Source of the DNA: Luteimonas huabeiensis HB2
Lineage (GTDB): Bacteria > Pseudomonadota > Gammaproteobacteria > Xanthomonadales > Xanthomonadaceae
NCBI RefSeq assembly: GCF_000559025.1
Contig: NZ_JAAN01000014.1
Coordinates: forward strand, 62,001 to 126,000
Direction of reading: 5' to 3'
DNA: 64,000 nucleotides
The position numbers were made by a program, and so were the translations under genes. Every line of letters starts with the position of its first letter. Positions within the stretch are counted from its first letter, which is position 1. The notes under the pieces are model-generated. The model ran no database searches. It was not told the DNA's origin and worked only from the letters and a program-made list of their open reading frames with translations. Shown here piece after piece: positions 5,059 through 35,343 of this stretch.

Positions 5059-5186
5059 CCATCGCGGGTGCGATGGCTGTTCGCGTCGAGGGATGCGATG
5101 CGAACGGTTCGGTCAGCGCGGTATCACCGCGCCGTAGCCTCGAAGACCGTGGCTACCTGGGCATGTCGCCATCGTCGATGGCGGAC
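5059..5186 (-). ncRNA. Structured element R1 (multi-stem-loop, copy 1 of 5)
   Basis: Four successive stem-loops: CCATCGC/GCGATGG (5059-5076), GCGCGGT/ACCGCGC (5116-5132), GTAGCC/GGCTAC (5134-5156) and GCCATC/GATGGC (5168-5182). The third has a loop containing TCGAAGACCG, conserved in the other copies. A conserved stretch near GATGCGATGCGAAC separates the first two stems. The stem at 5134-5156 differs from R2 (GCAGCC/GGCTGC) by a compensatory change. It ends 97 bp upstream of radC and overlaps the 3' end of the DsbA-like gene. It could be an RNA leader or a hairpin DNA promoter. Confidence 0.65.
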
Positions 5187-5923
5187 AGGTCCGGGGGCTC
5201 GGCCGGCGCGGCCGGCAATTCGTTGGACGTGAGCAGGTCCAGCGCGGAGAGCAGCGCGTCGGCCTCGACCGGGCCGGGCAGCAGCAGGGATTGGCCGGTG
5301 GCCTCGTCGCGCACGCGCAGGGTTGGCGTGGCGTTGATACCGTCGCGGCTGCCCTCGCGTGCCTGGGCCTGGATGCGCGCCACGGTGCGGTCGCTGTCGA
5401 GGCAGGCTTGCAGCGCGGCGGACTGGCCGGGAAAGCGTGCCTCCTCCGGCACGCCCTGGCCGTTGCCGCGGGTGTGCTGGTAGAGCCAGGTCACGGCCTG
5501 CCAGAACGCGGCCGGTCCGCCGGTCTCGCCGGCGCACTCGGCCAGGCTGGCGAGCTGGGTGGCCGTCGGCTCGTGCGCCGGCAGCGGCAGGTGGTGCCAG
5601 CGCAGGCGCGTGTCCGGGTGCTGGTCGATCCACGCCATCACTTGGGGGACATACGCCTTGCAGTACGGGCACTCCAGGTCGGCGTAGAGGATCAGCGTGA
5701 AGCGGGCCTCGGCGGCGCCGTGGTGCCACGGCGGGCCGGCCTGCTGGGCCGGCGTGGCGGCCGGGGCGTCATTGCCGGCCGGCAGCGGCGGCAGCGGCGC
5801 GTCGGGCGCCGGTGGGCCGGACAGGAACCAGGCCAGCAGCAACAGCAGCACCAGCGCTGCCGCGGAGGCAGGCCAGACAAGGCGGCGCCAGGCGCCGCGG
5901 GGGGACGGGGTCGTCGTTCGCAT
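5153..5923 (-). CDS. Membrane-anchored DsbA-like thiol oxidoreductase
   Basis: A 256-aa protein. One N-terminal membrane anchor (residues about 15-35, AAALVLLLLLAWFLSG) is followed by a proline-rich linker and a DsbA/thioredoxin domain with the active site ECPYCKAY near residue 85 and a cis-proline in NATPTLRV. It should face the periplasm. Disulfide enzymes are common in ICE T4SS clusters, and the Cys-rich TIGR03756 protein is a plausible client. Its last codons lie inside structured element R1, so this stretch is constrained twice. It lies in the cargo hot spot next to the divergent AbiE pair. Confidence 0.85.
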   Translation of the reverse strand: MRTTTPSPRGAWRRLVWPASAAALVLLLLLAWFLSGPPAPDAPLPPLPAGNDAPAATPAQQAGPPWHHGAAEARFTLILYADLECPYCKAYVPQVMAWIDQHPDTRLRWHHLPLPAHEPTATQLASLAECAGETGGPAAFWQAVTWLYQHTRGNGQGVPEEARFPGQSAALQACLDSDRTVARIQAQAREGSRDGINATPTLRVRDEATGQSLLLPGPVEADALLSALDLLTSNELPAAPAEPPDLSAIDDGDMPR

Positions 5924-6045
5924 CGCTGTCCCTGTGGTCGAATCCGGGCCGATTGCCGGGGGTCGAGTCCATCACCTGCGCGCGGGCGCAGGGGGCAACA
6001 ATCCGGCATGGCCGGGTTCCCCTTGTGAGGTGGTATGTGACAAAA

Positions 6046-6074
6046 CCTCTGCTATATTCTCCATGTAGCAGAGG
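6046..6074 (+). promoter_or_regulatory. Promoter/operator of the abiE operon
   Basis: Nine-base inverted repeats CCTCTGCTA and TAGCAGAGG flank a -10-like TATATT at 6053-6058, directly before the ribosome site and GTG start of abiEi. AbiEi antitoxins are known to autorepress by binding inverted repeats at their promoter, and this position fits exactly. No clear -35 box was found. Confidence 0.7.
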
Positions 6075-6084
6075 AATCGTCACA

Positions 6085-6705
6085 GTGGCAAACACCAGCA
6101 CCCAGCGCGACCAGGCGCTCAAGCTCCTGGGCGCCCGTTCCACGATGCGGCAGAGGGACTTCGCCGCCCGAGGCATCGACCCGGAGACGCTTGCGCGCCT
6201 GGTCCGGGAAGGCGTCGTCGTGCGTCCGGCACGGGGGCTGTACCAGCTGGCCGACGGGCCGGCCGACGCTCGCCGGGCGCTGGCCGAAGCCGCGGCGCTT
6301 GTGCCCAAGGGCGTCGTCTGCCTGGTGTCGGCGCTGCAATTTCACGAACTCACCCTGCAGATGCCGTCGAGCGTGTGGATGGCGATCGAGCGGACCGCCT
6401 GGCGCCCGCGGATCGACTACCCGCCGATCCGGTTCGTGCGCTTCACCGGGTCGGCCATGAACGAGGGGGTCGAACGGCATCGCATCGAGGGCGTGGACGT
6501 GGCGATCACCGATCCGGCGCGGACCATCGTCGATTGCTTCCGCTATCGCGAGAAGATCGGGATCGACGTGGCGCTGGAAGGACTGCGCGAGGGCCTGCGG
6601 CAGCGCAAGGCGACGAGCGATCAGCTGTGGCGGTACGGGACCAAGGCCCGGGTCTGGTCGACCATGAAACCCTATGTCGAGGCGACGGTGGCCGATGGCG
6701 CGTGA
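6085..6705 (+). CDS. abiEi: AbiEi-family antitoxin/transcriptional regulator
   Basis: A 206-aa protein of the type IV toxin-antitoxin antitoxin family. It has an N-terminal winged helix (residues about 1-60, with STMRQRDFAARGIDPETLAR) and a C-terminal AbiEi domain (TDPARTIVDCFRYREKIG). It neutralises AbiEii and represses the operon. The GTG at 6085 is chosen for its GAGGAATC ribosome site and its position just after the operator. The gene overlaps abiEii by 11 bp. It is on the plus strand, against the surrounding T4SS genes, as expected for an inserted cargo. Confidence 0.9.
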   Translation: MANTSTQRDQALKLLGARSTMRQRDFAARGIDPETLARLVREGVVVRPARGLYQLADGPADARRALAEAAALVPKGVVCLVSALQFHELTLQMPSSVWMAIERTAWRPRIDYPPIRFVRFTGSAMNEGVERHRIEGVDVAITDPARTIVDCFRYREKIGIDVALEGLREGLRQRKATSDQLWRYGTKARVWSTMKPYVEATVADGA

Positions 6706-7603
6706 ACCCCTGAAGAATGTCGGCGCATCGGTGCGGGCTCGCCTGCTGCAGCGCTCCCGTGACGAGCGCACCGACTTCCAGATCCTGCTGACGCGCTATG
6801 CGCTGGAGCGGCTGCTGTACCGGCTGAGCGTGTCCGCCCATCGCAACCGCTTCATCCTCAAGGGTGCAATGCTGTTCGTGACCTGGGTGGAAGCGCCGTT
6901 CCGTCCGACGCGCGATCTGGACTTGCTCGGCTATGGCGAGAACAGTCCCGAGGCAATTGCCGAAGCGTTTCGCGCGATCCTGGCCCAGCCCGTCGATGAC
7001 GACGGTGTGGCGTTCGATGTCGATGGGCTCGAAGCCGCGCCGATCCGCGAGGAACTGGAGTACGGCGGCGTGCGGGTTCGCACGCGGGCCACGATTGCCG
7101 GCGCTCGCGTTCCGATCCAGGTCGATGTGGGTTTCGGCGATGCGATCACGCCCGGGCCGATCGAGATCGACTACCCGGCGCTGCTCGATGCGCCGGCGCC
7201 GCACCTGCGGGCGTATCCCGTCGAGACAGTGGTGGCGGAGAAGTTTCATGCGCTCGCGTCGCGCGGCATCGCCAACAGCCGGCTGAAGGATTTCTACGAT
7301 CTGTGGGTGATCGCCTCGACGTTCGAGCTGGAGCGGATGCCGCTGGCCGCGGCCGTCCGTCAGACCTTCGAGCGGCGCGACACGGCGCTACCGCAGGAGC
7401 GGCCGACCGGGTTCACCGCTGCCTACGCCGAGACCTGGGGCGGACAGTGGCAGGCGTTCCTGACCCGCGAGCGGATGGCGGCAGCGCCGGGGGACCTGGC
7501 AACGGTGATCGCGGACCTGGAGCGCTTCCTGATGCCGCTGCTGGAGGACGTGGAAGCATCCTGGCGCTGGAAGCCTGGTCATGGGTGGCACGAGGCAAGG
7601 TAA
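6695..7603 (+). CDS. abiEii: AbiEii/AbiGii-family nucleotidyltransferase toxin
   Basis: A 302-aa DUF1814 nucleotidyltransferase. Family motifs are visible: LKGAMLFVTW followed by RPTRDLDLLGYG (catalytic Asp pair), AEKFHALASRG and SRLKDFYDLWVIA. It is the toxin of a type IV toxin-antitoxin system that can work in phage abortive infection and element stabilisation. All key residues appear intact. It ends 65 bp from the convergent T4SS ATPase gene at 7668. Confidence 0.9.
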   Translation: MAREPLKNVGASVRARLLQRSRDERTDFQILLTRYALERLLYRLSVSAHRNRFILKGAMLFVTWVEAPFRPTRDLDLLGYGENSPEAIAEAFRAILAQPVDDDGVAFDVDGLEAAPIREELEYGGVRVRTRATIAGARVPIQVDVGFGDAITPGPIEIDYPALLDAPAPHLRAYPVETVVAEKFHALASRGIANSRLKDFYDLWVIASTFELERMPLAAAVRQTFERRDTALPQERPTGFTAAYAETWGGQWQAFLTRERMAAAPGDLATVIADLERFLMPLLEDVEASWRWKPGHGWHEAR

Positions 7604-7667
7604 GCGCGTATTCCGCACAGGCACGTTCGCGATTCACCCAATCGCCTGACTGCGCCAGAGCGCGACG

Positions 7668-10556: not shown

Positions 10557-10987
10557 CAGTAGTCCTCGATCCGCTCGCCGGGCAGCGCGTACTGGATCCG
10601 CTGATACAAGGGGAACACCGTCGTGTAGCCGGGCACCGGCGCCTGGTCCGTGCCGGCTAGGTGCGGAAACACGTACATCACCAGGTCTGGGTTCGGCAGG
10701 CGGTGGAACTGGCGGTAGATCTCGTTCTGCGCGGTGCGCGTGTAGCGGGCCTGCTCGGCGGGAGCGGCCCGCACATCGGTGGCCGTGAGTGGACGGCGCA
10801 GCGACTGCCGGGCATCGAGCAACCGGCGTTCGCTCGGTCCACCGGCACCACCGCCGGTCTCGGCGTTCCAGATGTCGAGCATGGTCTGGTCCGAGCGCGG
10901 CATCAGCTCGTCCTTCGTGGTCGCGCAGCCGGCCAGCACTAGGGCAATCCCCAGCGCGGCCAGCGCGTCAGTCCAGGTCTTGCGCAT
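10556..10987 (-). CDS. T4SS lipoprotein, TIGR03751 family
   Basis: A 143-aa lipoprotein: signal sequence with lipobox LVLAGC (Cys about residue 22) and a mature part ending in YTTVFPLYQRIQYALPGE. It is probably an outer-membrane lipoprotein of the core complex, analogous to VirB7/TraV. It overlaps the TIGR03752 gene upstream and abuts the ATPase gene downstream, so it is translated as part of the T4SS operon. Confidence 0.9.
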   Translation of the reverse strand: MRKTWTDALAALGIALVLAGCATTKDELMPRSDQTMLDIWNAETGGGAGGPSERRLLDARQSLRRPLTATDVRAAPAEQARYTRTAQNEIYRQFHRLPNPDLVMYVFPHLAGTDQAPVPGYTTVFPLYQRIQYALPGERIEDY

Positions 10988-12398
10988 GGGTGGTGTCTCC
11001 GAGTCGGTGATCGACGCGGCGGCCGGCCGGGTCGTAGTCGATGGTCAGGGGTTCTTCGAGATGCACGGCGACCTTGGCGCCGGGTTGCACGTAGACGGCT
11101 GCGAACGCCTGGCCGTAGAGCTTGTTGACCCAATCGGCCATGTCGCGGACACCGCCGGCCAAGATGCGGCCCATCGCTTCGTTGCCGGTGATGCCCACCG
11201 TGCCGATGGAGCCATCGGCGCCGACGTAGGACATGCGGCCGCTGGCGGTGTCGATCAGGGAGGCCACGCCGGCGCCGGCAGCGGTGATCAGTGCCTGGCT
11301 GCCGAGGTACTGCTGCGCGTTGGAGCGGCGGTCGCCGCTGACGCAGGGAATCCCGTGCGGGTCACTGATCCAGCCGAGGCCGTCCTGGGTGGTGTTGCCA
11401 TCGTTCTGCTGGCGGTTGCCGCCGCGCTCGCGATCTTCGGGAACGGTGCGGATGGTCCCGTCGTTGAACACGAACGTCACCGAGCGGATCTGGCCGCGCA
11501 CGCACGAGAGCGTCCAGTCGCCCGACGCGGTTCCGCTGACGACGGCACCGGCCACGTCGGGGATATCGATGCCGTTGGCGGTGAGGTTGTCGGGGCCGAT
11601 CAATACCTTGAACGGGTAAGGATCGTTCACCGTCCCGTCGATCGGCACGCGGCCGATCAGTGCCGTCATGGCGACCGATCCCATCAGCGTGGAGTTCGTC
11701 GGGACGGTGTAGACAGGCTTCATGCCCGGCTTGCCGGCTGCGCGGCGACCAGCGTCCACGGCGTCGTCGGTGGCTTGGCTAATGCCTTCGCCGGCCTCTC
11801 CAAAGCTCGTGGGAAAGCTGAAGTTGTCCGTGCCGCCTGGGGAACGTCCGCGTCCTTCCTCGCGTGCGTCGTCCGGCTCGACCCAATGGATGGCGTCGCT
11901 GCCGGCACCGGTACTGTCGCCCGGTTCCAGGCCCAGGCCCACTGGCAGGTCGGCGTGGCCGTCCCGGCGACCGGTCACGCCGTCTAGGCGTTGCTGTAGC
12001 TCCTGCAGCAGGCCCTGGGTCTGCTGCCGTTCGGCGGCGGCCTGCTCCCTGTCCTGTCGAAGCTGGTTGCGCTCGGTTTCGATTGCGCTCTGGATACGGC
12101 GATCGACGGCACCCTCGCGCTGGCGCAGGCGTTCGTTCTCGTCGCGCTGCGCCTTGTTCTTCGTCACTGCTGTCTGCAGTTCGCCGCGCAACTGCCGGAC
12201 CTGCGCCACGAGCGTGGCGACTGTATCGCGGGGCGTATCGCCCGTGATCCCGAGCGCGGCGGCTTCCTCCGGGGTGAGTTGGTCTGTTGGTCCCGGGGGG
12301 GAAGTGTCACCGCCACCGGAAAGCAGCTTGAAGCCGACGAAGACCAGCAACAGCACCATCGGGATCATCAGCCACTTGAGCAGGCCGTTACTCTTCAT
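10968..12398 (-). CDS. TraB/VirB10-like T4SS core protein, TIGR03752 (PFL_4705)
   Basis: A 476-aa protein: one N-terminal membrane segment (IPMVLLLVFVGFKLL), a coiled coil (residues about 60-135, rich in Gln/Arg/Glu), then the conserved C-terminal domain (TVPTNSTLMGSVAMTALIGR and onward). This is the VirB10-like scaffold that spans inner and outer membranes. The start at 12398 overlaps the end of TIGR03749; the longer open frame to 12497 reads through that gene and is not used. Confidence 0.9.
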   Translation of the reverse strand: MKSNGLLKWLMIPMVLLLVFVGFKLLSGGGDTSPPGPTDQLTPEEAAALGITGDTPRDTVATLVAQVRQLRGELQTAVTKNKAQRDENERLRQREGAVDRRIQSAIETERNQLRQDREQAAAERQQTQGLLQELQQRLDGVTGRRDGHADLPVGLGLEPGDSTGAGSDAIHWVEPDDAREEGRGRSPGGTDNFSFPTSFGEAGEGISQATDDAVDAGRRAAGKPGMKPVYTVPTNSTLMGSVAMTALIGRVPIDGTVNDPYPFKVLIGPDNLTANGIDIPDVAGAVVSGTASGDWTLSCVRGQIRSVTFVFNDGTIRTVPEDRERGGNRQQNDGNTTQDGLGWISDPHGIPCVSGDRRSNAQQYLGSQALITAAGAGVASLIDTASGRMSYVGADGSIGTVGITGNEAMGRILAGGVRDMADWVNKLYGQAFAAVYVQPGAKVAVHLEEPLTIDYDPAGRRVDHRLGDTTHAQDLD

Positions 12399-14976: not shown

Positions 14977-15350
14977 GGCGTGGCCTCCGGTTCACGGGAG
15001 GCGGAGGCCGCGGCCTGGCGGTAGTCGCCGAGCAGTACGGCCGGGTCGCGTGGCTGGGCGCGCGATGGCGTCAGGTAGTCGCGGATGCCGGCGCGGACGC
15101 GCTCAAGGTCGGCGCTTAGCCGGCAGTAGTCGAAGTGGTAGCGAGCGCGCTCGTCGCGAGGGCGCACGGTCTCCTGCGCGATCAGCTGGTCGATCGCGTC
15201 GAGCTGGCGCAGCGCAGCGGCCAAGCGCGCATGCTCGGGGCTCGCGTCGTCGGCATGGGCGTGGGGCGAGACGCCCAACGCCATGCACAACGCCAGCAAC
15301 AGGCCCAGCACGCAACGCCAGTCGGCGGCAGGAGGAACGGTCATCCGCAT
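14973..15350 (-). CDS. RAQPRD-family ICE protein (TIGR01690)
   Basis: A 125-aa secreted protein with a signal peptide (LGLLLALCMALGVSPHAHA). The eponymous RAQPRD motif is present in PSRAQPRDPAVLLGDY. It is a periplasmic helical protein, conserved in ICE transfer regions, of unknown mechanism. It follows a 111-bp gap after TIGR03747, one of the few spaces in the T4SS operon, where a secondary promoter could sit. Confidence 0.9.
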   Translation of the reverse strand: MRMTVPPAADWRCVLGLLLALCMALGVSPHAHADDASPEHARLAAALRQLDAIDQLIAQETVRPRDERARYHFDYCRLSADLERVRAGIRDYLTPSRAQPRDPAVLLGDYRQAAASASREPEATP

Positions 15351-15461
15351 TTGCCAATCCGCGAATCACGAGGGATGGCGAAATGCTCTCGGCGCGGTCC
15401 GATGCGCGCCGCAAACAATGCGGACTGGCGCCGGTCCGATTGATGGGCGGGCGTGGTGGCG

Positions 15462-16211
15462 CTAGAGGTACTTCTTGAAGGTGCTGGCAGCGATGCACAC
15501 CGCCACGCCCAGCAGGATCGCGCTGGGCAGCAGGATCAGCAGCGGATGCACGCTGACCGGCAGCGCGAGGTAGACGATCCAGGGCAGCACGATCAGCGGC
15601 ATCAGCGCCGCCTTGGCGCGGTGGTAGACGAAGCCGGATTCGCGGCCGGCGCCGAACTTGCGCACGTCGCGCCGCGCCAGTCCATCGACGAAGCCGACGA
15701 ACGCCGCCATCAGGAACAGCGGCAGCGTCAGGGTCAGCACCAGGAGCCTGACGATGAAGGTAAGCGTGGTGTAGGCCGCGGCGATCAGGTAGCTCTCGCT
15801 CCACACGTAGACCTGGCTCACGTAGTAGCGGAAGTCGCGTGCGCTGTCCTGGCTGGGCGCGCGTGCACGGGCCGAGACGTTGCTCATCCATTCGAGCAGG
15901 CCGCTCTTCACGAAGATCCATTCGTAGGAACGCTCGACCAGCCAGTGCGCGGTGCGGCCGGGCTCCTGGACGACGGCGCTGCGGGTGAAGTGCGCGGACA
16001 GCTGCCCGAGTTCGTAGTCGAGCATGCCCTGGGCGTGGTGCCAGCCTTGCTCGGGCCAGAAGAAGTGCATGCCGACGCACTCGATCACGATGGACAGCAG
16101 CAGCGCTCCGATCAGCACGCCGAGGAACCGGAACGGCATCGTCACGATGCTGGCCAGCAGTCCCTGTTGGCGGGCCTGCTGGTGCTGGGCGGTGGTGGCC
16201 GGATCCTTCAT
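15462..16211 (-). CDS. T4SS membrane protein, TIGR03747 (PFL_4697)
   Basis: A 249-aa integral membrane protein with about four hydrophobic segments: residues about 25-45, two around 135-170, and a C-terminal pair ending in AILLGVAVCIAASTFKKYL. It always sits next to TraD in this ICE class and may assist the coupling protein. It overlaps the traD stop by four bases. Confidence 0.9.
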   Translation of the reverse strand: MKDPATTAQHQQARQQGLLASIVTMPFRFLGVLIGALLLSIVIECVGMHFFWPEQGWHHAQGMLDYELGQLSAHFTRSAVVQEPGRTAHWLVERSYEWIFVKSGLLEWMSNVSARARAPSQDSARDFRYYVSQVYVWSESYLIAAAYTTLTFIVRLLVLTLTLPLFLMAAFVGFVDGLARRDVRKFGAGRESGFVYHRAKAALMPLIVLPWIVYLALPVSVHPLLILLPSAILLGVAVCIAASTFKKYL

Positions 16212-27180: not shown

Positions 27181-27204
27181 CCCCAGGGGGTGGAAGAAAA
27201 CCGT

Positions 27205-27465: not shown

Positions 27466-27485
27466 GTCGATTCCTCCTGTGCGGA

Positions 27486-27809: not shown

Positions 27810-27841
27810 GATGGAGACCTCCAGAAGAAAGCCAGGGCCTC

Positions 27842-27853
27842 CCCCGCATGGGG
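27842..27853 (-). promoter_or_regulatory. Short leader hairpin
   Basis: CCCC, GCAT loop, GGGG, in the same relative position as the inner stems of the two-tier leaders; the outer stem is weak here. Confidence 0.35.
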
Positions 27854-27902
27854 AAGGAACCACAGCGGGTGGATGAAGAACACCGCGGATGCGGCGTGGC
27901 GA

Positions 27903-28550
27903 TCAGGCCGCGGCAAGCTCCGCTTCGTGCTGCCACTGTTGCAAGGTGGCATCGAAGCTGTAGCCGAGCTTGCTGAGGCGGGTGCATTGCAGGCGCAACG
28001 TGCGGCGGTCGATGGTCGGGTCCAGCTTGACCGTCTCGCCCAGCGGCCACAGCAGGCCGAAAAGTGCGACGTCTTCGGCGTCGGAACTGCCAGCTGCCAC
28101 AGGGGCTGCGGGCGCTTCCATGCCGAAGGGCCGGGTGTCGATCAGAGGATCGTTCGTGGTCGAGGCCGGTACGGCTGCTGGCGTTGCCGCCATCGCCGTC
28201 GGCTGTTCCTCGTCGATCGGATCGACCTCCTGGACGTTGAAGGTGCGGGCGTCCTCCTTGCCCAGCTTGTCGATGCCGGACAGGGTCATGCCGTTGAGGC
28301 TGGCGCGCAGTTCGATGCGGACGCCGCCTTGGGACAAGACGGGCTTGTTGAAGATGCGCCGGATGGCGAACTCGCCCTCGTACTTGCCTTCCTTGTACTG
28401 CTCGAACTCCGGATCTTTGACAACGAAATCACCCAAGCAGCAGGTGAGCAGGCAGACATTGAACGGTCCGTTGCGGCCCCGGATGGTGCGCAGCTTGAGC
28501 TGGCCGGGAACGACGATGGACTCCAGGTGGGCGTGACGTGCAGCGTTCAT
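27903..28550 (-). CDS. DUF3275-family ICE protein
   Basis: A 215-aa protein with the DUF3275 N-terminal domain (LKLRTIRGRNGPFNVCLLTC and YEGEFAIRRIF), a flexible Ala/Pro/Thr-rich linker (residues about 115-150) and a C-terminal helical segment. The N-terminal part resembles a small OB-like domain of conjugative elements, and the overall plan (nucleic-acid-like domain plus tail) suggests a DNA-associated role. Structured element R2 lies upstream. Confidence 0.75.
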   Translation of the reverse strand: MNAARHAHLESIVVPGQLKLRTIRGRNGPFNVCLLTCCLGDFVVKDPEFEQYKEGKYEGEFAIRRIFNKPVLSQGGVRIELRASLNGMTLSGIDKLGKEDARTFNVQEVDPIDEEQPTAMAATPAAVPASTTNDPLIDTRPFGMEAPAAPVAAGSSDAEDVALFGLLWPLGETVKLDPTIDRRTLRLQCTRLSKLGYSFDATLQQWQHEAELAAA

Positions 28551-28679
28551 GTGACGACTCCTTTGATGATAGAAAACAAGGCTCCCGACCGGCCGGATGG
28601 ACGGGGGATGACCTCATGGGAAAAGGAAGCGGGTGCCGGTCGCGAAGGGCCGGAACCGGGAGGGAGATGACGGACGCGG

Positions 28680-28775
28680 GATGCGCTAGGACGGATCAGA
28701 ACCAGTGCGGTGTGACGCACCGCAGCCTCGAAGGTCTAGGCTGCCTGGGCATGCTGCCGGCGACGCCGGCGGACA
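28680..28775 (-). ncRNA. Structured element R2 (copy 2 of 5)
   Basis: Stems GTGCG/CGCAC (28705-28720), GCAGCC/GGCTGC (28722-28744) with conserved loop TCGAAGGTCT, and GCCGGC/GCCGGC (28756-28770). A conserved CTGGGCATG lies between the last two. It ends 130 bp upstream of the DUF3275 start at 28550. Confidence 0.65.
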
Positions 28776-28850
28776 TGGGGGTAAGGTTGCGGCGAGGTTC
28801 GACGCCAAGGGGAGCGGCAATGCGATTCCGGTTGCTCCCCTGTTTCTGAT

Positions 28851-29759
28851 CTATGCGGCGTGTTCTTGCGGTGCCGGCGGTCTTCCGCGCAAAGAAAACG
28901 GACCACGCCCGATGGGGTGGTCCGTTGGGTAATACGCTTTCAGTTCACGCATGCCTTCGGCCAGCAGCCAAAGAGCGCGATTCAAACGCACGTTCTGGTC
29001 GATGCCCTGCACCGGCCGGGTACGTTGCCGGCGGCCGTTGGCCGTGCGGCCGTCCAGTCCGCCCTTGACCAGGTTCTCCTGGACCCGGTTGAACGTGGAC
29101 CACAGGTCGGATTCCCGGTCATCGAAGCGCCGCGGCCGCAGCAGCTGGCTTTCGGTGATAGGCACCGAGCCCGAGCCCGCGTACTTCAGCGTCAGGGCCG
29201 AGTGCGCGAACACTTCTGCTTCGCCTTCGTCCAGCGTGATGGCGCGCATGGTGTCCCGGGAGTGCTCGATCCGCTCGAAGCTGCTGAGGACTTCATAAGC
29301 GCCTTCGATGACGTGGCTCGTGACGTCGCCCTTGTGGGGCACGCGCACGTCCAGGGTCGTGTCGCCGCAGACCAGGCCGTTGTGGCAGACGAAGCGGAAC
29401 ATGCCGCCCAGCATCTGATAGCTGCTGGTGCCGTCGTGCGAGTTCAGCAGGATGATCTCGTTGGCCTCGGCTTGGCCATCGATCTGGCTGGCATGCCGCA
29501 GCCGCAGCATGTGCTTGGTGAAATCGCGGCGATCCTCCTGCCGCACGCGGGTCTGGCAAACGAAGAACGGCTCGAAGCCTTCCTTGCGCAGCTTCTCCAG
29601 CACGGTGGCGGTCGGAATGTAGCTATAGCGCTCCGACCGGCTATCGTGCGCGGCCTCGGCGAAGATGGATGGGGCGACGGTGCGGATCTGATCGTCCGAC
29701 AGCGGGCGATCCGAACGCAGCACGGGGGATCGCGACCCAAAGCGGGATGCGAGTTGCAT
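28851..29759 (-). CDS. DUF932 domain protein
   Basis: A 302-aa protein of the DUF932 family found on phages, plasmids and ICEs. Typical parts are YSYIPTATVLEKLRKEGFEP, then LNSHDGTSSYQMLGGMFRFV with CHNGLVCGD. Function is unknown; frequent in plasmid leading regions, which hints at a role in establishment after transfer. The last 30 residues are basic and proline-rich. Confidence 0.88.
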   Translation of the reverse strand: MQLASRFGSRSPVLRSDRPLSDDQIRTVAPSIFAEAAHDSRSERYSYIPTATVLEKLRKEGFEPFFVCQTRVRQEDRRDFTKHMLRLRHASQIDGQAEANEIILLNSHDGTSSYQMLGGMFRFVCHNGLVCGDTTLDVRVPHKGDVTSHVIEGAYEVLSSFERIEHSRDTMRAITLDEGEAEVFAHSALTLKYAGSGSVPITESQLLRPRRFDDRESDLWSTFNRVQENLVKGGLDGRTANGRRQRTRPVQGIDQNVRLNRALWLLAEGMRELKAYYPTDHPIGRGPFSLRGRPPAPQEHAA

Positions 29760-29854
29760 GGCAGTCTCCTTGGAGAAAACGCAAGCAGTCCCGCAGGCCA
29801 GAGGCCGGCGAGGACCGATTGCAGGGATGAAGAACAGCCCGGAAGGGCCGAGGG

Positions 29855-29909
29855 AATCCGGGTCGAACCCGGTGCAGCCTCACGCCGCCGACACCGAGGT
29901 GCCGGCGGC
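29855..29909 (-). other. Paired hairpins between DUF3577 and DUF932 genes
   Basis: CCGGGT/ACCCGG around a CGA loop, followed by GCCGCCG/CGGCGGC (29883-29909) with an inner CACC/GGTG. They lie in the 195-bp gap before DUF932 and could terminate the DUF3577 transcript or form the DUF932 leader. The first hairpin resembles a tRNA T-arm, but no tRNA body is present. Confidence 0.4.
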
Positions 29910-29954
29910 ATGAAGACTGGGAGGAACACGCAGGACCCGGATGGGCCTTGCAGA

Positions 29955-30869
29955 TCAGAACGAAGCCGCCAGGGCGGGCTCCTCTTCAGGCACTTCGACG
30001 TTCGCCTCCTGCGGAGCAGGCTGCGCGGGCGTCTGGGTGCCGTTGACGTCCTCGGCTTGGGCGCTCGCCTCGGACGCGGTAGCGTCCTGGGGTGCGTCGG
30101 CTTCGGAAGTGGTCGGGTAGACCCGCTGACCGTTGACCTTGATCAGGCCGATGTGGATCAGCTTCGACTCCAGGCTCGCCGCGGCTTCGCCGGCCCGTTC
30201 ACCCTTGGTGCGGATGTACGGCTCGGCCTTCATGCCGTTCAGACGAAAGGCGATCAGTACCTTCTTCTTCGCCTCGACGGCCTGCATGCAGCGCCGCACC
30301 AGGTGCTCCGCGTCGCGGTTGGCAACGATGGTGTCGATGTACCGGTAGTCCGGATCGTCGACCGGTCCGCTGAGCACACCGAGGGTGCACGCAAGGAACG
30401 GATCGCTCTCCGCCGGTCTCACCAGCTTGGGACGGTTGAGGTAGCCGATGCCATGGGTGATCAGGTCGTACTGCTCGATCGTCGCCAGTTCGGCGGGATC
30501 CAGCGGCTCGGCCTTGAGCAGACGCGCCTTGAGGCTGGCTGCCGGCTCGCCCTTGCGGTCGCCCTTGGGACGGATGAACGGATCGACCCACAGGTCGCCG
30601 AGACGGAAGCGCACGAGCGGACGCTGCTCCGGATCGTCGTTGCCGACGTAGCGTTCGACCAGTTTCTTCGCCTCCGCACCGGACACTTTCACGTCGAAGT
30701 AGCGGCGCTTCTCGTCGTTGGCGGAACCCACGAGGGCGGCGATGGTGCAGGCCAGAAACGGCTGTGCCTTGCGGCCGCCGGTGGCTTTCACAACGCGGGC
30801 GCGCTGGATGTAGCCGATGCCCGAGGTGTGCAGGTCGAAGTAGGACTTCTGATTGAGTGCTGTGGTCAT
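29955..30869 (-). CDS. DUF3577 protein with two tandem domains (STY4534 type)
   Basis: A 304-aa ICE protein containing the DUF3577 domain twice: residues about 10-100 (LHTSGIGYIQRARVVK ... FIRPKGDRKGEPAASLKARL) and about 120-220 (ITHGIGYLNRPKLVR ... YIRTKGERAGEAAASLESKL). A low-complexity acidic tail follows. The family is called an ICE replication protein, but the activity is not established. Elements L (30906) and R3 (30974) precede it. Confidence 0.85.
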   Translation of the reverse strand: MTTALNQKSYFDLHTSGIGYIQRARVVKATGGRKAQPFLACTIAALVGSANDEKRRYFDVKVSGAEAKKLVERYVGNDDPEQRPLVRFRLGDLWVDPFIRPKGDRKGEPAASLKARLLKAEPLDPAELATIEQYDLITHGIGYLNRPKLVRPAESDPFLACTLGVLSGPVDDPDYRYIDTIVANRDAEHLVRRCMQAVEAKKKVLIAFRLNGMKAEPYIRTKGERAGEAAASLESKLIHIGLIKVNGQRVYPTTSEADAPQDATASEASAQAEDVNGTQTPAQPAPQEANVEVPEEEPALAASF

Positions 30870-30905
30870 GGTGAATCTCCAGACTTAGGATCAAGAACAG
30901 CGGAG

Positions 30906-30935
30906 ACACACCTTTCCCACGGCGGGGAGGTGCGT
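30906..30935 (-). promoter_or_regulatory. Two-tier leader hairpin before the DUF3577 gene
   Basis: Outer arms ACACACCT/AGGTGCGT (8 bp, one mismatch) with an inner CCC/GGG stem, 37 bp before ATG 30869. Confidence 0.55.
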
Positions 30936-30973
30936 AACCCCGCGATGGGTTGAGGAACATGGGTGCATCACCA

Positions 30974-31091
30974 CCGGCGAGCCGGCGGTCGTTCGCGCGA
31001 GGATGCGATGCGAACTGGTTCAGTCACACGGGTGAGCCGTGCGCAACCTTGAAGACCGAAAGTTGCCTGGTTGACGCTGACAACGTCAGCG
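30974..31091 (-). ncRNA. Structured element R3 (copy 3 of 5), upstream of DUF3577
   Basis: Stems CCGGC/GCCGG (30974-30985), CACGG/CCGTG (31027-31041), GCAAC/GTTGC (31043-31066) with the conserved loop TTGAAGACCG, and CGCTGAC/GTCAGCG (31075-31091). The conserved GATGCGATGCGAACTGGTTC lies at 31002-31021. Each stem keeps pairing while its sequence differs from R1 and R2. RNA motifs named after DUF genes, including one I recall as DUF3577, have been proposed by comparative genomics. I cannot check whether this is the same. Confidence 0.7.
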
Positions 31092-31227
31092 GAACGTGAT
31101 TTGCAGCCTACGCGCGGGGCCTGCCGTCGCGAGCGGAAATGGGTATCCGTCCGAGACCGCATTGGCCGAAGGCGGCCGCCTGAATCTGAAGGGCTTCCCG
31201 CCGCGAGGGCGGGAAGCAAGGCCGGGA

Positions 31228-32025
31228 TCAATGCCGGACGGACTTGGGGCCAGACAGGTGCTGGATGCGGATGAAGCGCCAGGTGCCGTCGTCGATCAGG
31301 CGTTCCAGAACGCTGCCGAGATCGTCGAAGAACACGTCCTCTACCCGTTCAACCTGCGTGCCGTCCCGGTGCAGCTCGATCACGTACTGGTCGGCAGCGC
31401 GGTCGTAGAGCACGGTGACCTGGCCCTCGAACTTCCCGGTTGCAACGGAGAAGCGGATGGCTGGCGGCGTCTTGAGGATATTGGCCGGCGTCGGATCGAC
31501 CCAGCTGAAGTCTTTGGCGCCCGCATCGACCAGCATGTGGGTGATGCGACGGAAACCATCGGGGGCTGGCAACTGCTCCAGCTGATTGATCAACTCGGCC
31601 AGCTCGGGGCAACGCGGCGCCGGTATCGGCAGCTTGGCCGGTGCACTGCCCAGCACGAACGTCTGCACCGTGTAGGGCACACCATCGGCGGTTCGTTCGG
31701 TCCGCTCTTCGGGTGTGTCGGCCCGCAGGCCGTCGAAGCGGCGTCTGGCGTAGGGTTCCACGTGAACCTTGGCGCCTTCGGCGGGATCCTCGGTCAAGAG
31801 TGCCCGATCGAGCACCGCGAACTCAGCGCGGCCTGTCTTGACGACGATGACCTCGGCGGTCTTGGCGATCACCTTGCCGTCGAACGGCTTCGGGTCGACC
31901 TGGAATCCCAGGGCCGAAACCTTGGGCTGGCCGTCGAAGATGTTGAACTTGAAGCTGCGGACATTGGAAGGCACATGGCCGTGAACCAGTGTCGGCATCT
32001 GATCGCGAATGGCTTGGGTATCCAT
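31228..32025 (-). CDS. Conserved ICE protein of unknown function
   Basis: A 265-aa soluble protein beginning MDTQAIRDQMPTLVHGHVPS, with SFKFNIFDGQPKVSALGFQV in the first third and a C-terminal DDGTWRFIRIQHLSGPK. No domain recognised. It carries a leader hairpin (32051-32081) and structured element R4, so it heads a regulated unit. Confidence 0.7.
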   Translation of the reverse strand: MDTQAIRDQMPTLVHGHVPSNVRSFKFNIFDGQPKVSALGFQVDPKPFDGKVIAKTAEVIVVKTGRAEFAVLDRALLTEDPAEGAKVHVEPYARRRFDGLRADTPEERTERTADGVPYTVQTFVLGSAPAKLPIPAPRCPELAELINQLEQLPAPDGFRRITHMLVDAGAKDFSWVDPTPANILKTPPAIRFSVATGKFEGQVTVLYDRAADQYVIELHRDGTQVERVEDVFFDDLGSVLERLIDDGTWRFIRIQHLSGPKSVRH

Positions 32026-32050
32026 GGGAGGCTCCTTGAGGAAAAGTCAA

Positions 32051-32081
32051 GGGACTCCCGCCCGCAAGGGAGGATCGTCCC
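32051..32081 (-). promoter_or_regulatory. Two-tier leader hairpin
   Basis: Outer GGGAC/GTCCC and inner CCC/GGG arms, 26 bp before ATG 32025. Confidence 0.6.
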
Positions 32082-32097
32082 TTGTGGGTTGCGTGAT

Positions 32098-32205
32098 GGA
32101 CGCGAAGCGCGTCCGGGGATGAGGAAACGACCAGCACGGCAAGCCGCGCCGCAGTCCTGAAGGTCTCGACTGCCTGGGCATGCTGCCGGCAACGCCAGCG
32201 AACAT
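32098..32205 (-). ncRNA. Structured element R4 (copy 4 of 5)
   Basis: Stems GGACGCG/CGCGTCC (32098-32114), a weak CGG/CCG (32137-32146), GCAGTC/GACTGC (32151-32173) with conserved loop CTGAAGGTCT, and an imperfect stem at 32184-32200 (one C-A mismatch). The conserved CTGGGCATG lies between the last two. The GCAGTC/GACTGC stem is a covarying version of R1 GTAGCC/GGCTAC and R2 GCAGCC/GGCTGC. Confidence 0.6.
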
Positions 32206-32308
32206 GCAGACAGCCTGAAGGAGTGCATGCCTGGAATCGCCGGGGAATCGGAACTTCGCCAGTACCGGGTTCCGGAAAAGAAAGAGCCCCGGCATGGGGG
32301 CTCAGGGT

Positions 32309-33028
32309 TCACTCGTCTTCGTACAGCGGCAGGCCGTCCAGCACAGGCGCATCGGCGTCGAACACCAGCATGCGGACGTCGGCCAGCGCGGCCAGATGAA
32401 GCACCTCGACGAGGCATTCCGGCATACCCTTCTTCCGATGCTCCTGTCGCAGTCGTTCGGCGGTGGTGCCGTCGACCAGTTGCAGGTTCTCGTCGGTCCA
32501 GGGCGTGGCGATCAGCTTTACGCCGATCGCCGGGCTGTAGGGGATGCGGAATGCGACGAACAGGAAGCGGCTCGGGGTCGCAAGATCGGCCAGATCAGCC
32601 AGATAGCGGCCTGCCTCCTCGGTGATGTGCGCGAAACTGATTTCCCAGCACCGGCTGTAGTAGCCCGTCTCGAACTTCAGGCGTCGCACGACCTCGCGCG
32701 CAGCTTCCTCGGAGTACGTGTCGCCCACGTGCACGGGCTGGCCGTCGAAGTCGTCCGCAGCGACGGCGTAGACCACCGCGCGCACGATGCCCTCGGTCGG
32801 ACATTGGGATTCCAGCTCTTCAGGCACTTCCTGCCCTTCGGTGATCAGCGCGAAATCCTTGCCGATCAGGCAGGGAAACAGCGCGACCTGATCGTCGGGC
32901 AGGTACGCCTGGCTGGCGTGCAAGGGTCGCCAAACCGGCGGGCAGTCCTCCTCATGCGTGATGAGGAGGGTATGAACGATGCGCGGGTTCAGATACCCGC
33001 GGGCGAAGGGGTTGTCGATGGTAGACAT
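32309..33028 (-). CDS. Conserved ICE protein of unknown function
   Basis: A 239-aa acidic protein beginning MSTIDNPFARGYLNPRIVHT, with no signal or membrane segment. No domain recognised. It is preceded by the two-tier hairpin at 33052-33088 and followed by R4. Confidence 0.65.
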   Translation of the reverse strand: MSTIDNPFARGYLNPRIVHTLLITHEEDCPPVWRPLHASQAYLPDDQVALFPCLIGKDFALITEGQEVPEELESQCPTEGIVRAVVYAVAADDFDGQPVHVGDTYSEEAAREVVRRLKFETGYYSRCWEISFAHITEEAGRYLADLADLATPSRFLFVAFRIPYSPAIGVKLIATPWTDENLQLVDGTTAERLRQEHRKKGMPECLVEVLHLAALADVRMLVFDADAPVLDGLPLYEDE

Positions 33029-33051
33029 GGGATTCGCTCCAGCAGAGTATG

Positions 33052-33088
33052 GCTGGGTCCATCCCCGGCTGGGGATAGATTCCCCAGC
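33052..33088 (-). promoter_or_regulatory. Two-tier leader hairpin
   Basis: Outer GCTGGG/CCCAGC and inner ATCCCC/GGGGAT around a GGCT loop, 24 bp before ATG 33028. Confidence 0.65.
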
Positions 33089-33111
33089 GGGTCGATAGAA
33101 GTGGCGTCCGG

Positions 33112-33801
33112 TCAGGCCGGCACAGGTGACGGTGGATCACCGAGCAGTTGCTCGATCACACGCCTGCGCAGGCGTTCGCGAATTGATTCCTCGCTGATGC
33201 CTGCAAGCAGCGTCTGCGTCTCTTTGGCGATCCTGGCGGCGGCCTTATCGAGGTCGTCAGCAAGAAGCGCCTGGTGCAGATCCAGCCCCAGGTCCAGTGC
33301 CTGGCGGGAACTACTGAACACGTTCAGCTCACGGCTGAGGAAGCAACCCTCGCCGCCGAACTCGAACAGGCGTGGCTTGCTGCAATGCCAGCAGCCCTCG
33401 AACTGGATGGCGGCCAGGTTATGGCCGTCGTTGAAGCACGAGGCGATGAGCAGCAATGCGTCCAGGTCCGCGGAATCCTCGAACCGATGATGTTCGATGA
33501 GGTTCTGCAGCTCCAGGTTCTGATCTGCGCCGAAGTGCGGGGCCAGCACTTCAAGGATCATTGCCATCGACGGGTCTTCCTCGTCCGGGACCGGAAGATC
33601 GAGCACGGTAGCGAGGTCGGTCAGCGCCTCCAGTACGTCGTCCCATTGCGGGTCGTTGGATTCGGATATGCGCGCAATGTAGGTCTGTCCGTTGCCAGGA
33701 TAGGACGCATCCAGATTGAAACCGTCGAACAGCGCGGTGATGACGGGTGTGACCCTTTCGAGCATCAGGACGCCGGTGGCGTCGTAGTAGTTGTTGGCCA
33801 T
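33112..33801 (-). CDS. Conserved ICE protein of unknown function
   Basis: A 229-aa acidic, helical protein beginning MANNYYDATGVLMLERVTPV. Two cysteines, in FEGCWHCSKPRLFEFGGEGC, may be structural. No family recognised. A leader hairpin lies at 33836-33861. Confidence 0.65.
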   Translation of the reverse strand: MANNYYDATGVLMLERVTPVITALFDGFNLDASYPGNGQTYIARISESNDPQWDDVLEALTDLATVLDLPVPDEEDPSMAMILEVLAPHFGADQNLELQNLIEHHRFEDSADLDALLLIASCFNDGHNLAAIQFEGCWHCSKPRLFEFGGEGCFLSRELNVFSSSRQALDLGLDLHQALLADDLDKAAARIAKETQTLLAGISEESIRERLRRRVIEQLLGDPPSPVPA

Positions 33802-33835
33802 GGTGGCTCCTTGGGATGAAAGCGCGGAGCCACGC

Positions 33836-33861
33836 CCCTGCGGACGATGGCATCCGCAGGG
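33836..33861 (-). promoter_or_regulatory. Leader hairpin
   Basis: Perfect arms CCCTGCGG/CCGCAGGG around a 10-nt loop, 35 bp before ATG 33801. Confidence 0.6.
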
Positions 33862-33909
33862 AGAAGCCCGAGGCCACGAAGGCTCCGGGCGGTGAAAGGC
33901 CGGCAAGGA

Positions 33910-34374
33910 TCAGTCGCCGAAGTCCGTGGGATCGCCCAGGGCCTTCAACAGATCGATCAAGCCGCCGTTGGCGAGCTGGTACAGCGCGTTGTAGTCGTCG
34001 CCGGTCGGCACCTGCTCCAGGCGGTCGAGCCGGGCATCGAGGTCGAGGATGCTCTGGCGCACTTCACGGGCGAGCACCAGGGCTGGCGAGGGTTTCTCGC
34101 CATCGTCGGTCGCGCCCAGCGCCGTGAGTACGGCTTTGGGCGACAGCGCATCCTTGAGGGATTCGTACACTTCCGGCGTTTCGATGCGGCAGACCGCCTC
34201 GGTCTGCTCGCTGCCGATGGAGAATTGAGTGATCTCGTCGTCGTCGGCACCTTCGGTGTCGTAGTCGACGATCACGATCCGCGGATGCGGGATCGCACCG
34301 GACCAATCCTGGACGATGACGGTTTGGACGAGGCCGCCTTCAAGGACGACGGCGATGGAAGGGATTCGGGACAT
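33910..34374 (-). CDS. Conserved ICE protein of unknown function
   Basis: A 154-aa acidic protein beginning MSRIPSIAVVLEGGLVQTVI. The N-terminal half is beta-rich (IPHPRIVIVDYDTEGADDDE) and the C-terminal half helical. No domain recognised. The strong leader at 34397-34430 precedes it. Confidence 0.65.
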   Translation of the reverse strand: MSRIPSIAVVLEGGLVQTVIVQDWSGAIPHPRIVIVDYDTEGADDDEITQFSIGSEQTEAVCRIETPEVYESLKDALSPKAVLTALGATDDGEKPSPALVLAREVRQSILDLDARLDRLEQVPTGDDYNALYQLANGGLIDLLKALGDPTDFGD

Positions 34375-34396
34375 GGTCGCTCCTGGGAAAAGAAGG

Positions 34397-34430
34397 AGGG
34401 ACATGGCCCCGAACGGGGACGCATGTCCCT
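34397..34430 (-). promoter_or_regulatory. Two-tier leader hairpin
   Basis: Outer AGGGACATG/CATGTCCCT (9 bp perfect) and inner CCCC/GGGG around GAAC, 23 bp before ATG 34374. Confidence 0.68.
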
Positions 34431-34474
34431 CGTGGGGTTGGAAAAGAGAAAGCTGCTGGCTTGCCGGATGAGGT

Positions 34475-34867
34475 TCACCAGCCGGTGTAGTGCAGCGTCA
34501 GGTCGGCGATAACCTTGCGTCGCTGCAGATCGAGGCCGCCGAGGTCGGACAGGCCCTCGAAGCCGCAGCGTTTGAGCATCGCTCCGCCTTCGTGGCTGTT
34601 GTAGAAGCTCACCATTGCGGCGAGGAACATCCGCTGCCCGCCGCTCAGGACGCCCAGGGCGTCGCTGATCATCAGCAGGTTCGGACGCAGGTCCCACTTG
34701 GTGGTGGCTTTTTGCAGGCCCTCGCGCGTGCCGTCGCCGAACCATTCGGCGCCGGCGATCCTGGCGCCACGCTTCCAAGCCTCGAAGAAAGCCTGGGGCG
34801 CGTCGGTGAAGTGCTGTTGTTCCAGCACGATCTGATCAAGTACGTCGGACGGAAGAGACGAGTTCAT
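34475..34867 (-). CDS. Conserved ICE protein of unknown function
   Basis: A 130-aa soluble, mostly helical protein beginning MNSSLPSDVLDQIVLEQQHF and ending RRKVIADLTLHYTGW. No domain recognised. It follows the 83-aa gene by 27 bp and probably shares its transcript. Confidence 0.65.
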   Translation of the reverse strand: MNSSLPSDVLDQIVLEQQHFTDAPQAFFEAWKRGARIAGAEWFGDGTREGLQKATTKWDLRPNLLMISDALGVLSGGQRMFLAAMVSFYNSHEGGAMLKRCGFEGLSDLGGLDLQRRKVIADLTLHYTGW

Positions 34868-34894
34868 GACGGTACTCCGGAGGGAGAGTTGGAA

Positions 34895-35146
34895 TCAGGG
34901 TTCGAGACGCTGCTGCCAACGCCCGGTTGCCAGGGCGCGATCTGCGGCGTGCCGGGAACGGAAGTACTCAGCGGACTCCCGGGAGACGGGACCGTCGTCA
35001 TCGGCTGTGCCGATGTAGTGACCCGCGGCGCTGTGGCGTATCCGCAGCGGCAGGCGCTTGCCCGTGTAGGCCAGGGCGAGATAGCCGATGGACTCGGCTC
35101 GGGCGTTTGCGGCGTTCAGTGACGCCGGTGTGGATCCAAGGGACAT
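34895..35146 (-). CDS. Small conserved ICE protein
   Basis: An 83-aa basic protein beginning MSLGSTPASLNAANARAESI, with AYTGKRLPLRIRHSAAGHYI in the middle. It heads the block of unknown ICE genes and is preceded by both a leader hairpin (35168-35200) and structured element R5. No known family. Confidence 0.6.
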   Translation of the reverse strand: MSLGSTPASLNAANARAESIGYLALAYTGKRLPLRIRHSAAGHYIGTADDDGPVSRESAEYFRSRHAADRALATGRWQQRLEP

Positions 35147-35167
35147 GGCTTCTCCTGGTTGAGGACC

Positions 35168-35200
35168 GGGAGGCCATATCCCGACGGGTATGGAACTCCC
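35168..35200 (-). promoter_or_regulatory. Two-tier leader hairpin
   Basis: Outer GGGAG/CTCCC and an inner stem CCATA-CCC/GGG-TATGG around GAC, 22 bp before ATG 35146. Confidence 0.62.
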
Positions 35201-35223
35201 GTGGGGTGGAGGTGAAAGCATCG

Positions 35224-35343
35224 GCGTCGGGGGAAGACGCTCGTCCGCAAAACGATGCGAGGCGGACTGGTTCGGTCGGTGCGGGGAACCGCATCGCAGC
35301 CTTGAAGACCGGGGCTGCTGGCGTGGTGCTGACGGACGTCAGC
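35224..35343 (-). ncRNA. Structured element R5 (copy 5 of 5)
   Basis: Stems GCGTC/GACGC (35224-35240), TGCGG/CCGCA (35280-35293), GCAGCC/GGCTGC (35296-35318) with loop TTGAAGACCG, and GCTGAC/GTCAGC (35328-35343). The conserved region around CGATGCGAGGCGGACTGGTT lies between the first two. Same order of parts as R1 and R3. Confidence 0.68.

What the first reader, a model, noticed from the sequence alone, without database searches (positions are those of the whole stretch)
5059..35343. Five-copy family of covarying multi-stem-loop elements upstream of ICE genes
Elements R1 (5059-5186), R2 (28680-28775), R3 (30974-31091), R4 (32098-32205) and R5 (35224-35343) share order and spacing: a first hairpin (not assigned in R2), a conserved GATGCGATGCGAAC-like stretch (R1, R3, R5), a second hairpin, a third with loop T(C/T)GAAG(A/G)(C/T)C, a CTGG...-type spacer, and a fourth hairpin. 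Stems change in a compensatory way: hairpin 3 is GTAGCC/GGCTAC, GCAGCC/GGCTGC, GCAAC/GTTGC, GCAGTC/GACTGC, GCAGCC/GGCTGC; hairpin 4 is GCCATC/GATGGC, GCCGGC/GCCGGC, GCTGAC/GTCAGC (twice) and an imperfect one. Each ends 73-130 bp before a minus-strand gene: radC, DUF3275, DUF3577 and two unknowns. This pattern indicates selection on structure. Possible roles: an RNA leader shared by a regulon; or a folded promoter on transferred single-stranded DNA (Frpo-like), which would express early genes on entry.
Basis: partly seen in the sequence, partly recalled or inferred. Interest (0 to 1): 0.88.

Follow-up and report, generated by a model that had tools for sequence, protein, structure and literature searches.

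The report
Folded RNA leaders of transfer genes
The five repeated elements are copies of the known but unexplained radC RNA; four of them sit directly behind a promoter-like block that also precedes several other operons of the same mobile element, so they are likely folded mRNA leaders that would control how strongly a chosen set of its genes is translated.

Summary
All five elements, read on the minus strand, match Rfam RF01754 'radC RNA' at 82-125 bits (cut-off 40). The family is known; the papers I could search state no function for it.

Added here:
(1) A revised structure. Pseudoknot PK1, helix P4 and pseudoknot PK2 covary strongly and are absent from the Rfam model's structure line.
(2) G-U pairs exceed A-C mismatches 24:2 on the coding strand in P1 and PK1. 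The folding molecule is thus mRNA-sense, which argues against a folded T-strand promoter (Frpo).
(3) In six gene families (72 of 74 nonredundant elements) the RNA begins at a fixed distance behind a promoter-like block. In the three ICEs of this genome the same block precedes the AcaB-like and topoisomerase genes, and in two also the RAQPRD gene.
(4) The Shine-Dalgarno sequence is predicted to be more paired than in shuffled leaders.

Best reading: a cis-acting leader that gives a subset of the ICE transfer regulon a second, translational gate. Switching, and any ligand or partner, are untested.

The parts
5052..5199 (-). R1, radC RNA (long form: P1, P2, P3, PK1, P4, P5, PK2), ahead of radC; overlaps the end of the upstream thioredoxin/DsbA-like gene
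   Evidence: RF01754, 125 bits; aligned in A5
28649..28787 (-). R2, radC RNA, ahead of the DUF3275 gene; 3' half unlike the long form
   Evidence: RF01754, 82.1 bits; core aligned in A2
30965..31106 (-). R3, radC RNA (long form), ahead of the DUF3577 gene
   Evidence: RF01754, 93.8 bits; A5; leader fold z -2.2
32060..32216 (-). R4, radC RNA (short form), ahead of the weakly KfrB-like gene
   Evidence: RF01754, 98.8 bits; leader fold z -4.1 with the SD in a hairpin
35218..35361 (-). R5, radC RNA (long form), ahead of an 83-aa gene
   Evidence: RF01754, 102.8 bits; A5
35354..35419 (-). promoter-like block before R5
   Evidence: held-out profile score 30.2; best scores in the reversed window 13.5 and 12.7
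32209..32274 (-). promoter-like block before R4
   Evidence: score 21.0
28781..28846 (-). promoter-like block before R2
   Evidence: score 19.5
31101..31166 (-). promoter-like block before R3 (weak)
   Evidence: score 11.8, below the two best reversed-window scores; its family passes 18 of 19 at the fixed place
40204..40269 (-). same block without radC RNA, before the AcaB-like (inrR-type) gene; predicted start 25 nt before its ATG at 40174
   Evidence: score 23.3, contains TTGACT; same 25-nt spacing in the other two ICEs
38076..38141 (-). same block without radC RNA, before the topoisomerase gene
   Evidence: score 18.0
15380..15445 (-). near-palindromic block before the RAQPRD gene (secretion region)
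   Evidence: scores 9.8 on the minus and 15.6 on the plus strand
4462..4962 (-). RadC gene downstream of R1
   Evidence: PF04002
27903..28550 (-). DUF3275 gene downstream of R2
   Evidence: PF11679
29955..30869 (-). DUF3577 gene downstream of R3
   Evidence: PF12101
31228..32025 (-). gene downstream of R4, weakly KfrB-like
   Evidence: PF18790 below its cut-off
34895..35146 (-). 83-aa gene downstream of R5
   Evidence: no Pfam hit; family of 29 downstream proteins
41648..42208 (-). DUF2857 gene, candidate BisC-type activator subunit
   Evidence: PF11198; ICEclc BisC has DUF2857 (PMC7423338, passage)
42229..43947 (-). ParB-family gene, candidate BisD-type activator subunit
   Evidence: TIGR03764; ICEclc BisD has a ParB domain

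Best explanation
The five elements are copies of Rfam family RF01754 (radC RNA), a structured RNA on the coding strand that likely works as an mRNA leader controlling translation of the gene just downstream. Shown: family membership; covarying stems, two pseudoknot-type pairings and helix P4; a coding-strand G-U bias; a fixed position behind a shared promoter-like block in six downstream gene families; and the same block ahead of other ICE operons that lack the RNA. Inferred: transcription starts at P1 under the ICE's transfer-competence activator (probably BisDC-like, with a sigma-S-like -10). The RNA then folds into one or two pseudoknotted modules. A hairpin next to the start codon hides the Shine-Dalgarno sequence until an unidentified signal (protein, metabolite or ribosome) opens it. 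This would let a subset of genes (RadC, DUF3577, DUF3275, KfrB-like, 83-aa) be timed separately from operons that share the block but not the RNA.
For: RF01754 matches. Covariation of PK1 and of P4 and PK2. P1+PK1 G-U 24: A-C 2 in 43 representatives. Leave-one-family-out promoter test 72 of 74 in six families. Same block before AcaB-like and topoisomerase genes in three ICEs and before RAQPRD in two. AcaB-type starts lie exactly 25 nt after the predicted start in all three ICEs (window; others), as mapped by RACE for ICEclc inrR (PMC2892462, passage). Start codons at 82-97 nt (56) or 112-143 nt (90) of 158 after the core. SD pairing 0.83 against 0.72 shuffled, 63 of 76 above their own mean; 16 control ICE genes 0.60 against 0.62.
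Against: No expression data for these leaders. The SD effect is modest, absent in the 83-aa family (0.68 against 0.66) and reversed in the two HSP90-like leaders (0.60 against 0.71); relatedness is not corrected. In the RadC family no promoter-like block lies before P1 (0 of 11), and 7 of 10 elements outside the main families lack it too, so the coupling to the promoter is not universal. The BisDC assignment is not tested. No ligand or partner is known.
Confidence: 0.6

Rival explanations
1. 5'-end stability element: the RNA protects the transcript from degradation and does not regulate translation as a switch.
For: P1 would begin at the transcript 5' end in most families; strong folds.
Against: In the RadC family it lies inside an operon, in the end of the upstream gene (10 of 11 representatives). 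Pseudoknots and conserved loop letters (CCCAGG, CUUCAA) are more than a protective hairpin needs.
Confidence: 0.15
2. Transcription attenuator: the leader decides on termination before the gene.
For: Several terminator-like sites between genes of the cluster (9 against 4.3 expected in 28500-35600).
Against: The leaders printed show, by eye, no stem followed by a long T run between the core and the start codon (one weak 5-pair site was scored just after R2, at 28597-28584).
Confidence: 0.08
3. Frpo-like promoter: the element folds on the transferred single strand and recruits RNA polymerase in the recipient before the second strand is made.
Against: G-U over A-C bias on the coding strand (24:2), whereas a template-strand fold predicts the reverse. 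The promoter-like block lies outside the fold. The block also precedes operons without the fold. oriT and transfer direction were not mapped.
Confidence: 0.04
4. The element is processed into a trans-acting small RNA.
For: Compact fold with several copies per element (12 in this genome).
Against: Tight spacing to start codons and SD pairing point to cis action.
Confidence: 0.05

Closest known systems
Rfam RF01754 radC RNA (Weinberg et al. 2010, PMC2864571)
   Same: All five copies score 82-125 bits against a cut-off of 40; 5' of RadC and other genes; marked Cis-reg in Rfam.
   Different: The Rfam model's structure line lacks PK1, P4 and PK2 and pairs GCG with UGC instead. PMC7657543 names radC among families with additional covarying pairs, so part of this may be known (one passage).
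ICEclc transfer-competence promoters (PMC9286271, PMC2892462)
   Same: AcaB-type (inrR-type by gene order and recall) promoter with TTGACT and a start 25 nt before the gene; DUF2857 and ParB genes present.
Frpo / ssi single-strand promoters
   Same: Folded elements ahead of genes of a conjugative element.
   Different: Fold on the coding strand, promoter-like block outside the fold.
STAXI motif (PMC2864571)
   Same: Tandem pseudoknots near SSB, integrase and antirestriction genes; its authors discussed single-stranded DNA against RNA (passages).
   Different: No STAXI match in the window at gathering level, nor in 28400-41000 up to E 0.5.

Membership tests
radC RNA (RF01754) | Covariance-model score at or above the gathering score | tested here: met
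   5 of 5, 82.1-125 bits, cut-off 40
radC RNA (RF01754) | Position 5' of a gene on the same strand | tested here: met
   Start codon found within 420 nt for 158 of 168 unique elements
Frpo-like single-strand promoter | Structure selected on the template (T) strand | tested here: not met
   G-U 24: A-C 2 on the coding strand in P1+PK1
Frpo-like single-strand promoter | -35 and -10 elements inside the hairpin | tested here: inconclusive
   No sigma-70 pair in 28500-35600, with 0.8 expected in shuffles; the conserved block lies outside the fold
Frpo-like single-strand promoter | Leading-region location and orientation to oriT | not tested
   oriT not mapped; relaxase genes located only
Riboswitch | Conserved structured receptor domain | tested here: met
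   Covarying stems and pseudoknots with conserved loop letters
Riboswitch | Expression platform acting on SD or terminator | tested here: inconclusive
   SD more paired than shuffled in 63 of 76 leaders; not in the 83-aa family
Riboswitch | Ligand binding that changes expression | not testable with these tools
   Needs bench work
ICEclc-type transfer-competence promoter | Start-site spacing and -35 as in inrR | tested here: met
   25 nt to the AcaB-type ATG in three ICEs, TTGACT present; ICEclc values from PMC2892462 passage
ICEclc-type transfer-competence promoter | The published 27-bp motif | not tested
   Printed only in S3 Fig of PMC9286271, not held for reading
ICEclc-type transfer-competence promoter | Binding or activation by BisDC | not testable with these tools
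   Only co-occurrence of radC RNA with DUF2857 was tested

The most novel reading that the evidence does not exclude
The radC RNA is the translational half of a two-key lock on conjugation. A BisDC-type activator opens one promoter class for the whole transfer-competence regulon, and tandem-pseudoknot RNA switches at the 5' ends of selected transcripts then hold back a subset of proteins until a second signal arrives. This would be the first assigned role for this orphan RNA and a new layer in bistable ICE activation.
Probability: 0.35. Interest if true: 0.75.

Novelty: new member of a known kind. Interest (0 to 1): 0.5.

Why it matters
radC RNA is catalogued in Rfam, and the papers I could search give it no function. 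Tying it to a promoter class like that of a well-studied ICE regulon, with a revised structure and a predicted RNA 5' end, turns an orphan motif into a testable question: does an RNA gate selected conjugation genes after the transcriptional decision has been taken? The G-U against A-C strand test used here is also a general way to tell RNA leaders from single-stranded DNA promoters on mobile elements.

Tried and rejected
A first alignment (A1) held four own-genome loci in the wrong orientation and was discarded; A2 and A5 replaced it. Plasmids: 8 records with a match, 3 covering at least 80% of the query. E. coli genomes: no match.

Frpo-like promoter: rejected by the strand test and by the promoter-like block lying outside the fold. 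Anti-defence role: 10 cluster proteins, none in PADLOC. Other Rfam families in 28400-41000: none but radC up to E 0.5. Single-sequence SD-helix scores for the window's genes were too noisy to use. A four-segment alternative pairing near the start codon, seen by eye, was not tested statistically and stays an idea.

Strand-test results that are weaker or against: P3 in fixed register 56 GU: 42 AC, outer P1 13:5, and in 74 representatives under 90% alike 61:34 over P1, outer P1, P3 and PK1 together; on A5 P3 9:13, outer P1 7:5, P5 29:9. With a register chosen by Watson-Crick pairs only, P3 is 44:10 on 165 but 3:1 on 43 representatives, P1 27:5 and 6:2, P5 8:0. P2 was left out of the totals because the search pattern fixed part of it. 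The promoter profile also scores six plus-strand sites (one the complement of the RAQPRD site) and one site before an unnamed ORF that I cannot place; a site before the DsbA-like gene upstream of R1 scores only 8.0, below background.

Rows dropped: 7 of 107 pattern matches by a hairpin filter (L112 among them was later found by the model); 6 of 35 representatives by eye before A2 (L033, L067, L081, L083, L097, L109; L081 was later found by the model); four own-genome loci left out as repeats of the window; 39 duplicates of 207 model hits; 3 of 168 before the strand alignment; the RadC family, gapped and redundant rows before the 80-sequence profile. The automatic start picker chose 39847 for the AcaB-like gene and 15167 for RAQPRD; 40174 and 15350 are used because the Pfam domains start at residues 10 and 35 of the longer frames and because homologous frames in the other ICEs start alike.
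Full report
A permissive scan of 28400-41000 adds no other family up to E 0.5. The family comes from Weinberg et al. 2010 (PMC2864571; I saw its table row and two STAXI passages, not the supplement). Searches for 'radC RNA motif', 'radC motif' and 'radC RNA' found no paper, and 'RF01754' found two. A four-term search (three terms required) found 18 papers; of the 10 listed, no title or abstract start concerns its function.

Setting. The genes belong to an ICE of the PAGI-2/ICEclc type (type name recalled): TraC_F_IV, DUF2895, DUF3487, DUF2976, RAQPRD, DUF4400, a TraG/TraD-like protein, DUF2859, topoisomerase, SSB, DUF3158, AcaB-like, STY4528, DUF2857, ICE-type ParB and ParA. The genome holds 12 radC RNAs in three clusters, three DUF2857 genes and three TraI_2 relaxase genes. 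radC RNA occurs in 2 of 369 genomes drawn from the class, the own one included, and in 4 of 61 relatives, own included. DUF2857 occurs in 5 of those 61: the same four plus one genome with a partial copy near a contig end; it is also in the more distant positive genome. Both are ICE genes or elements, so this shows co-residence, not regulation.

Structure. P1, P2, P3 and a pairing of the P2 loop with the bases just 3' of P3 (PK1) give 92.0% paired cells against 82.2% in column shuffles (0/500), and 151 cells changed on both sides against 44.1. Pair 55-91 in PK1 is U-A in 19 and C-G in 18 sequences. The outermost tested PK1 pair (52-94) is unpaired in 24 of 40 and is not part of the helix. For 44 long-form elements (A5) helix P4 is 99.6% paired, one pair being U-A 23, C-G 20, G-C 1. 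PK2 (GCAUC in the P4 loop with GAUGC 3' of P5) is 90.9% paired and changes together as GCACC/GGUGC, GCAUUC/GAAUGC and GCUUC/GAAGC. P5 is 59.1% in fixed register because its length varies. The Rfam model instead pairs GCG with UGC there (structure line). The long form thus has two modules of one plan: a hairpin whose loop pairs just 3' of the next hairpin. PMC7657543 names radC among families with additional covarying pairs (one passage), so the pseudoknots may be partly known.

Which strand folds. A G-U pair becomes an A-C mismatch on the complementary strand. In 43 representatives (under 80% alike) P1 and PK1 hold 24 G-U against 2 A-C cells (binomial p 1e-5); all 165 sequences give P1 47:2 and PK1 36:7. 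Noisier or weaker: outer P1 13:5 and fixed-register P3 56:42; P3 on A5 9:13; with a register chosen by Watson-Crick pairs only, P3 44:10 on 165 but 3:1 on 43, and P1 27:5 and 6:2. The bias is on the coding strand. Folding on a template T-strand, as for Frpo (PMC11541004, passages; mechanism partly recalled), predicts the reverse.

Promoter-like block. Upstream of P1, 80 nonredundant elements (RadC family left out) share A-67 A-66 ... G-62 G-61 ... C-47 C-46 ... T-43 T-42 ... C-14 C-13 A-12.. C-9 T-8, counted from the T of CATG in P1. The last part resembles a sigma-S -10 (consensus recalled). A profile trained on 94 sequences, own-genome copies held out, scores R5 30.2, R4 21.0, R2 19.5 and R3 11.8; the best reversed-window scores are 13.5 and 12.7. 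Without any radC RNA it scores 23.3 ahead of the AcaB-like gene and 18.0 ahead of the topoisomerase gene. Over 343,823 bases of two contigs (threshold 13.6) it gives 25 distinct sites against 2 in the reversed sequence: 10 at P1 of the 12 radC RNAs (R1 and R3 missing), three before AcaB-like genes, three before topoisomerase genes, two before RAQPRD genes, one before an ORF without Pfam hit, and six on the plus strand, one of them the complement of the window's RAQPRD site. Leave-one-family-out tests at the fixed place pass the 99% shuffle level in 18/18, 18/19, 20/20, 10/11, 3/3 and 3/3; the RadC family in 0/11. Ten other elements were only scored: three at 13.7 to 24.5, seven below -17. In the RadC family P1 lies in the end of the upstream open frame in 10 of 11 representatives, with the stop 35 nt after the reference T each time; by the same open-frame criterion 7/18, 7/19, 13/20 and 1/11 of the other main families also overlap a frame, mostly with differing ends. 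So the RNA also persists inside an operon, apart from the block.

Link to ICEclc. In ICEclc eight of nine bistable promoters share a 27-bp motif, with BisDC binding still to be confirmed (PMC9286271, section 6 read, passages). The inrR start was mapped by RACE to a T 25 nt before the start codon, with -35 TTGACT and a sigma-S-like -10 (PMC2892462, passages). In the window the block at 40269 contains TTGACT and predicts a start at 40199 (a T lies at 40200), 25 nt before the AcaB-like ATG at 40174; in the other two ICEs the AcaB-like ATG also lies exactly 25 nt after the predicted start. BisC carries DUF2857 and BisD a ParB domain (PMC7423338, passage); the window has both. The same group noted that read coverage and reporter output disagree at P81655 and Pint, and suggested post-transcriptional control; whether radC RNA is involved there is unknown.

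Towards function. Start codons were found for 158 of 168 unique elements; 56 lie 82-97 nt and 90 lie 112-143 nt after the core, by gene family: KfrB-like 41, DUF3577 37, the R5-gene family 29, RadC 20, a 218-aa family 15, and smaller ones. In 76 nonredundant leaders the SD is paired 0.83 against 0.72 after shuffling the sequence upstream; 63 of 76 exceed their own shuffled mean (Wilcoxon p 2e-9, relatedness not corrected). Sixteen other ICE genes with an SD (of 22 tried) show 0.60 against 0.62, and five cluster genes without radC RNA 0.75 against 0.73. The R5-gene family shows no effect (0.68 against 0.66) and the two HSP90-like leaders the opposite (0.60 against 0.71). The R4 leader folds with z -4.1 and its SD in a hairpin reaching the AUG; R3 has z -2.2.

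Conclusion. The leader reading is supported, the Frpo reading is not. My committed mechanism is a cis-acting RNA leader that gates translation of a subset of the transfer-competence regulon; the gate, the activator and the signal are inference.

Noticed in passing
window 44000-58200; own contig C14: Two ICEs lie one after the other on contig C14 (relaxase genes at 55 and 119 kb, DUF2857 genes at 104 and 204 kb). The window holds an integrase gene (47455-49581, +) and the second element's TraI_2 relaxase (56207-58195, -).
   Followed up: partly
33801, 34374 and other starts in 28-36 kb: Several cluster genes without radC RNA also carry a hairpin beside the start codon, for example GUGGCUCC facing GGAGCCAC before 33801; as a group of five they are not above shuffles.
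   Followed up: partly
R1, 5153-5155: The stop codon TAG of the upstream DsbA-like gene lies in the 5' strand of P2 in R1; the P2 pair there is U-A, while it is C-G in many other copies.
   Followed up: partly
L009, L015, L038, L114: radC RNAs without the promoter-like block (scores below -17), so another promoter type may serve them.
   Followed up: no
15414-15479 (+) and 15380-15445 (-): A near-palindromic promoter-like block before the RAQPRD gene scores on both strands (15.6 and 9.8); predicted start near 15375, 25 nt before the frame start at 15350.
   Followed up: partly
47561-47626 (+): A promoter-like block (14.3) lies at the 5' end of the integrase open frame; the ICEclc integrase promoter is one of the bistable promoters. 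The true integrase start was not settled.
   Followed up: no
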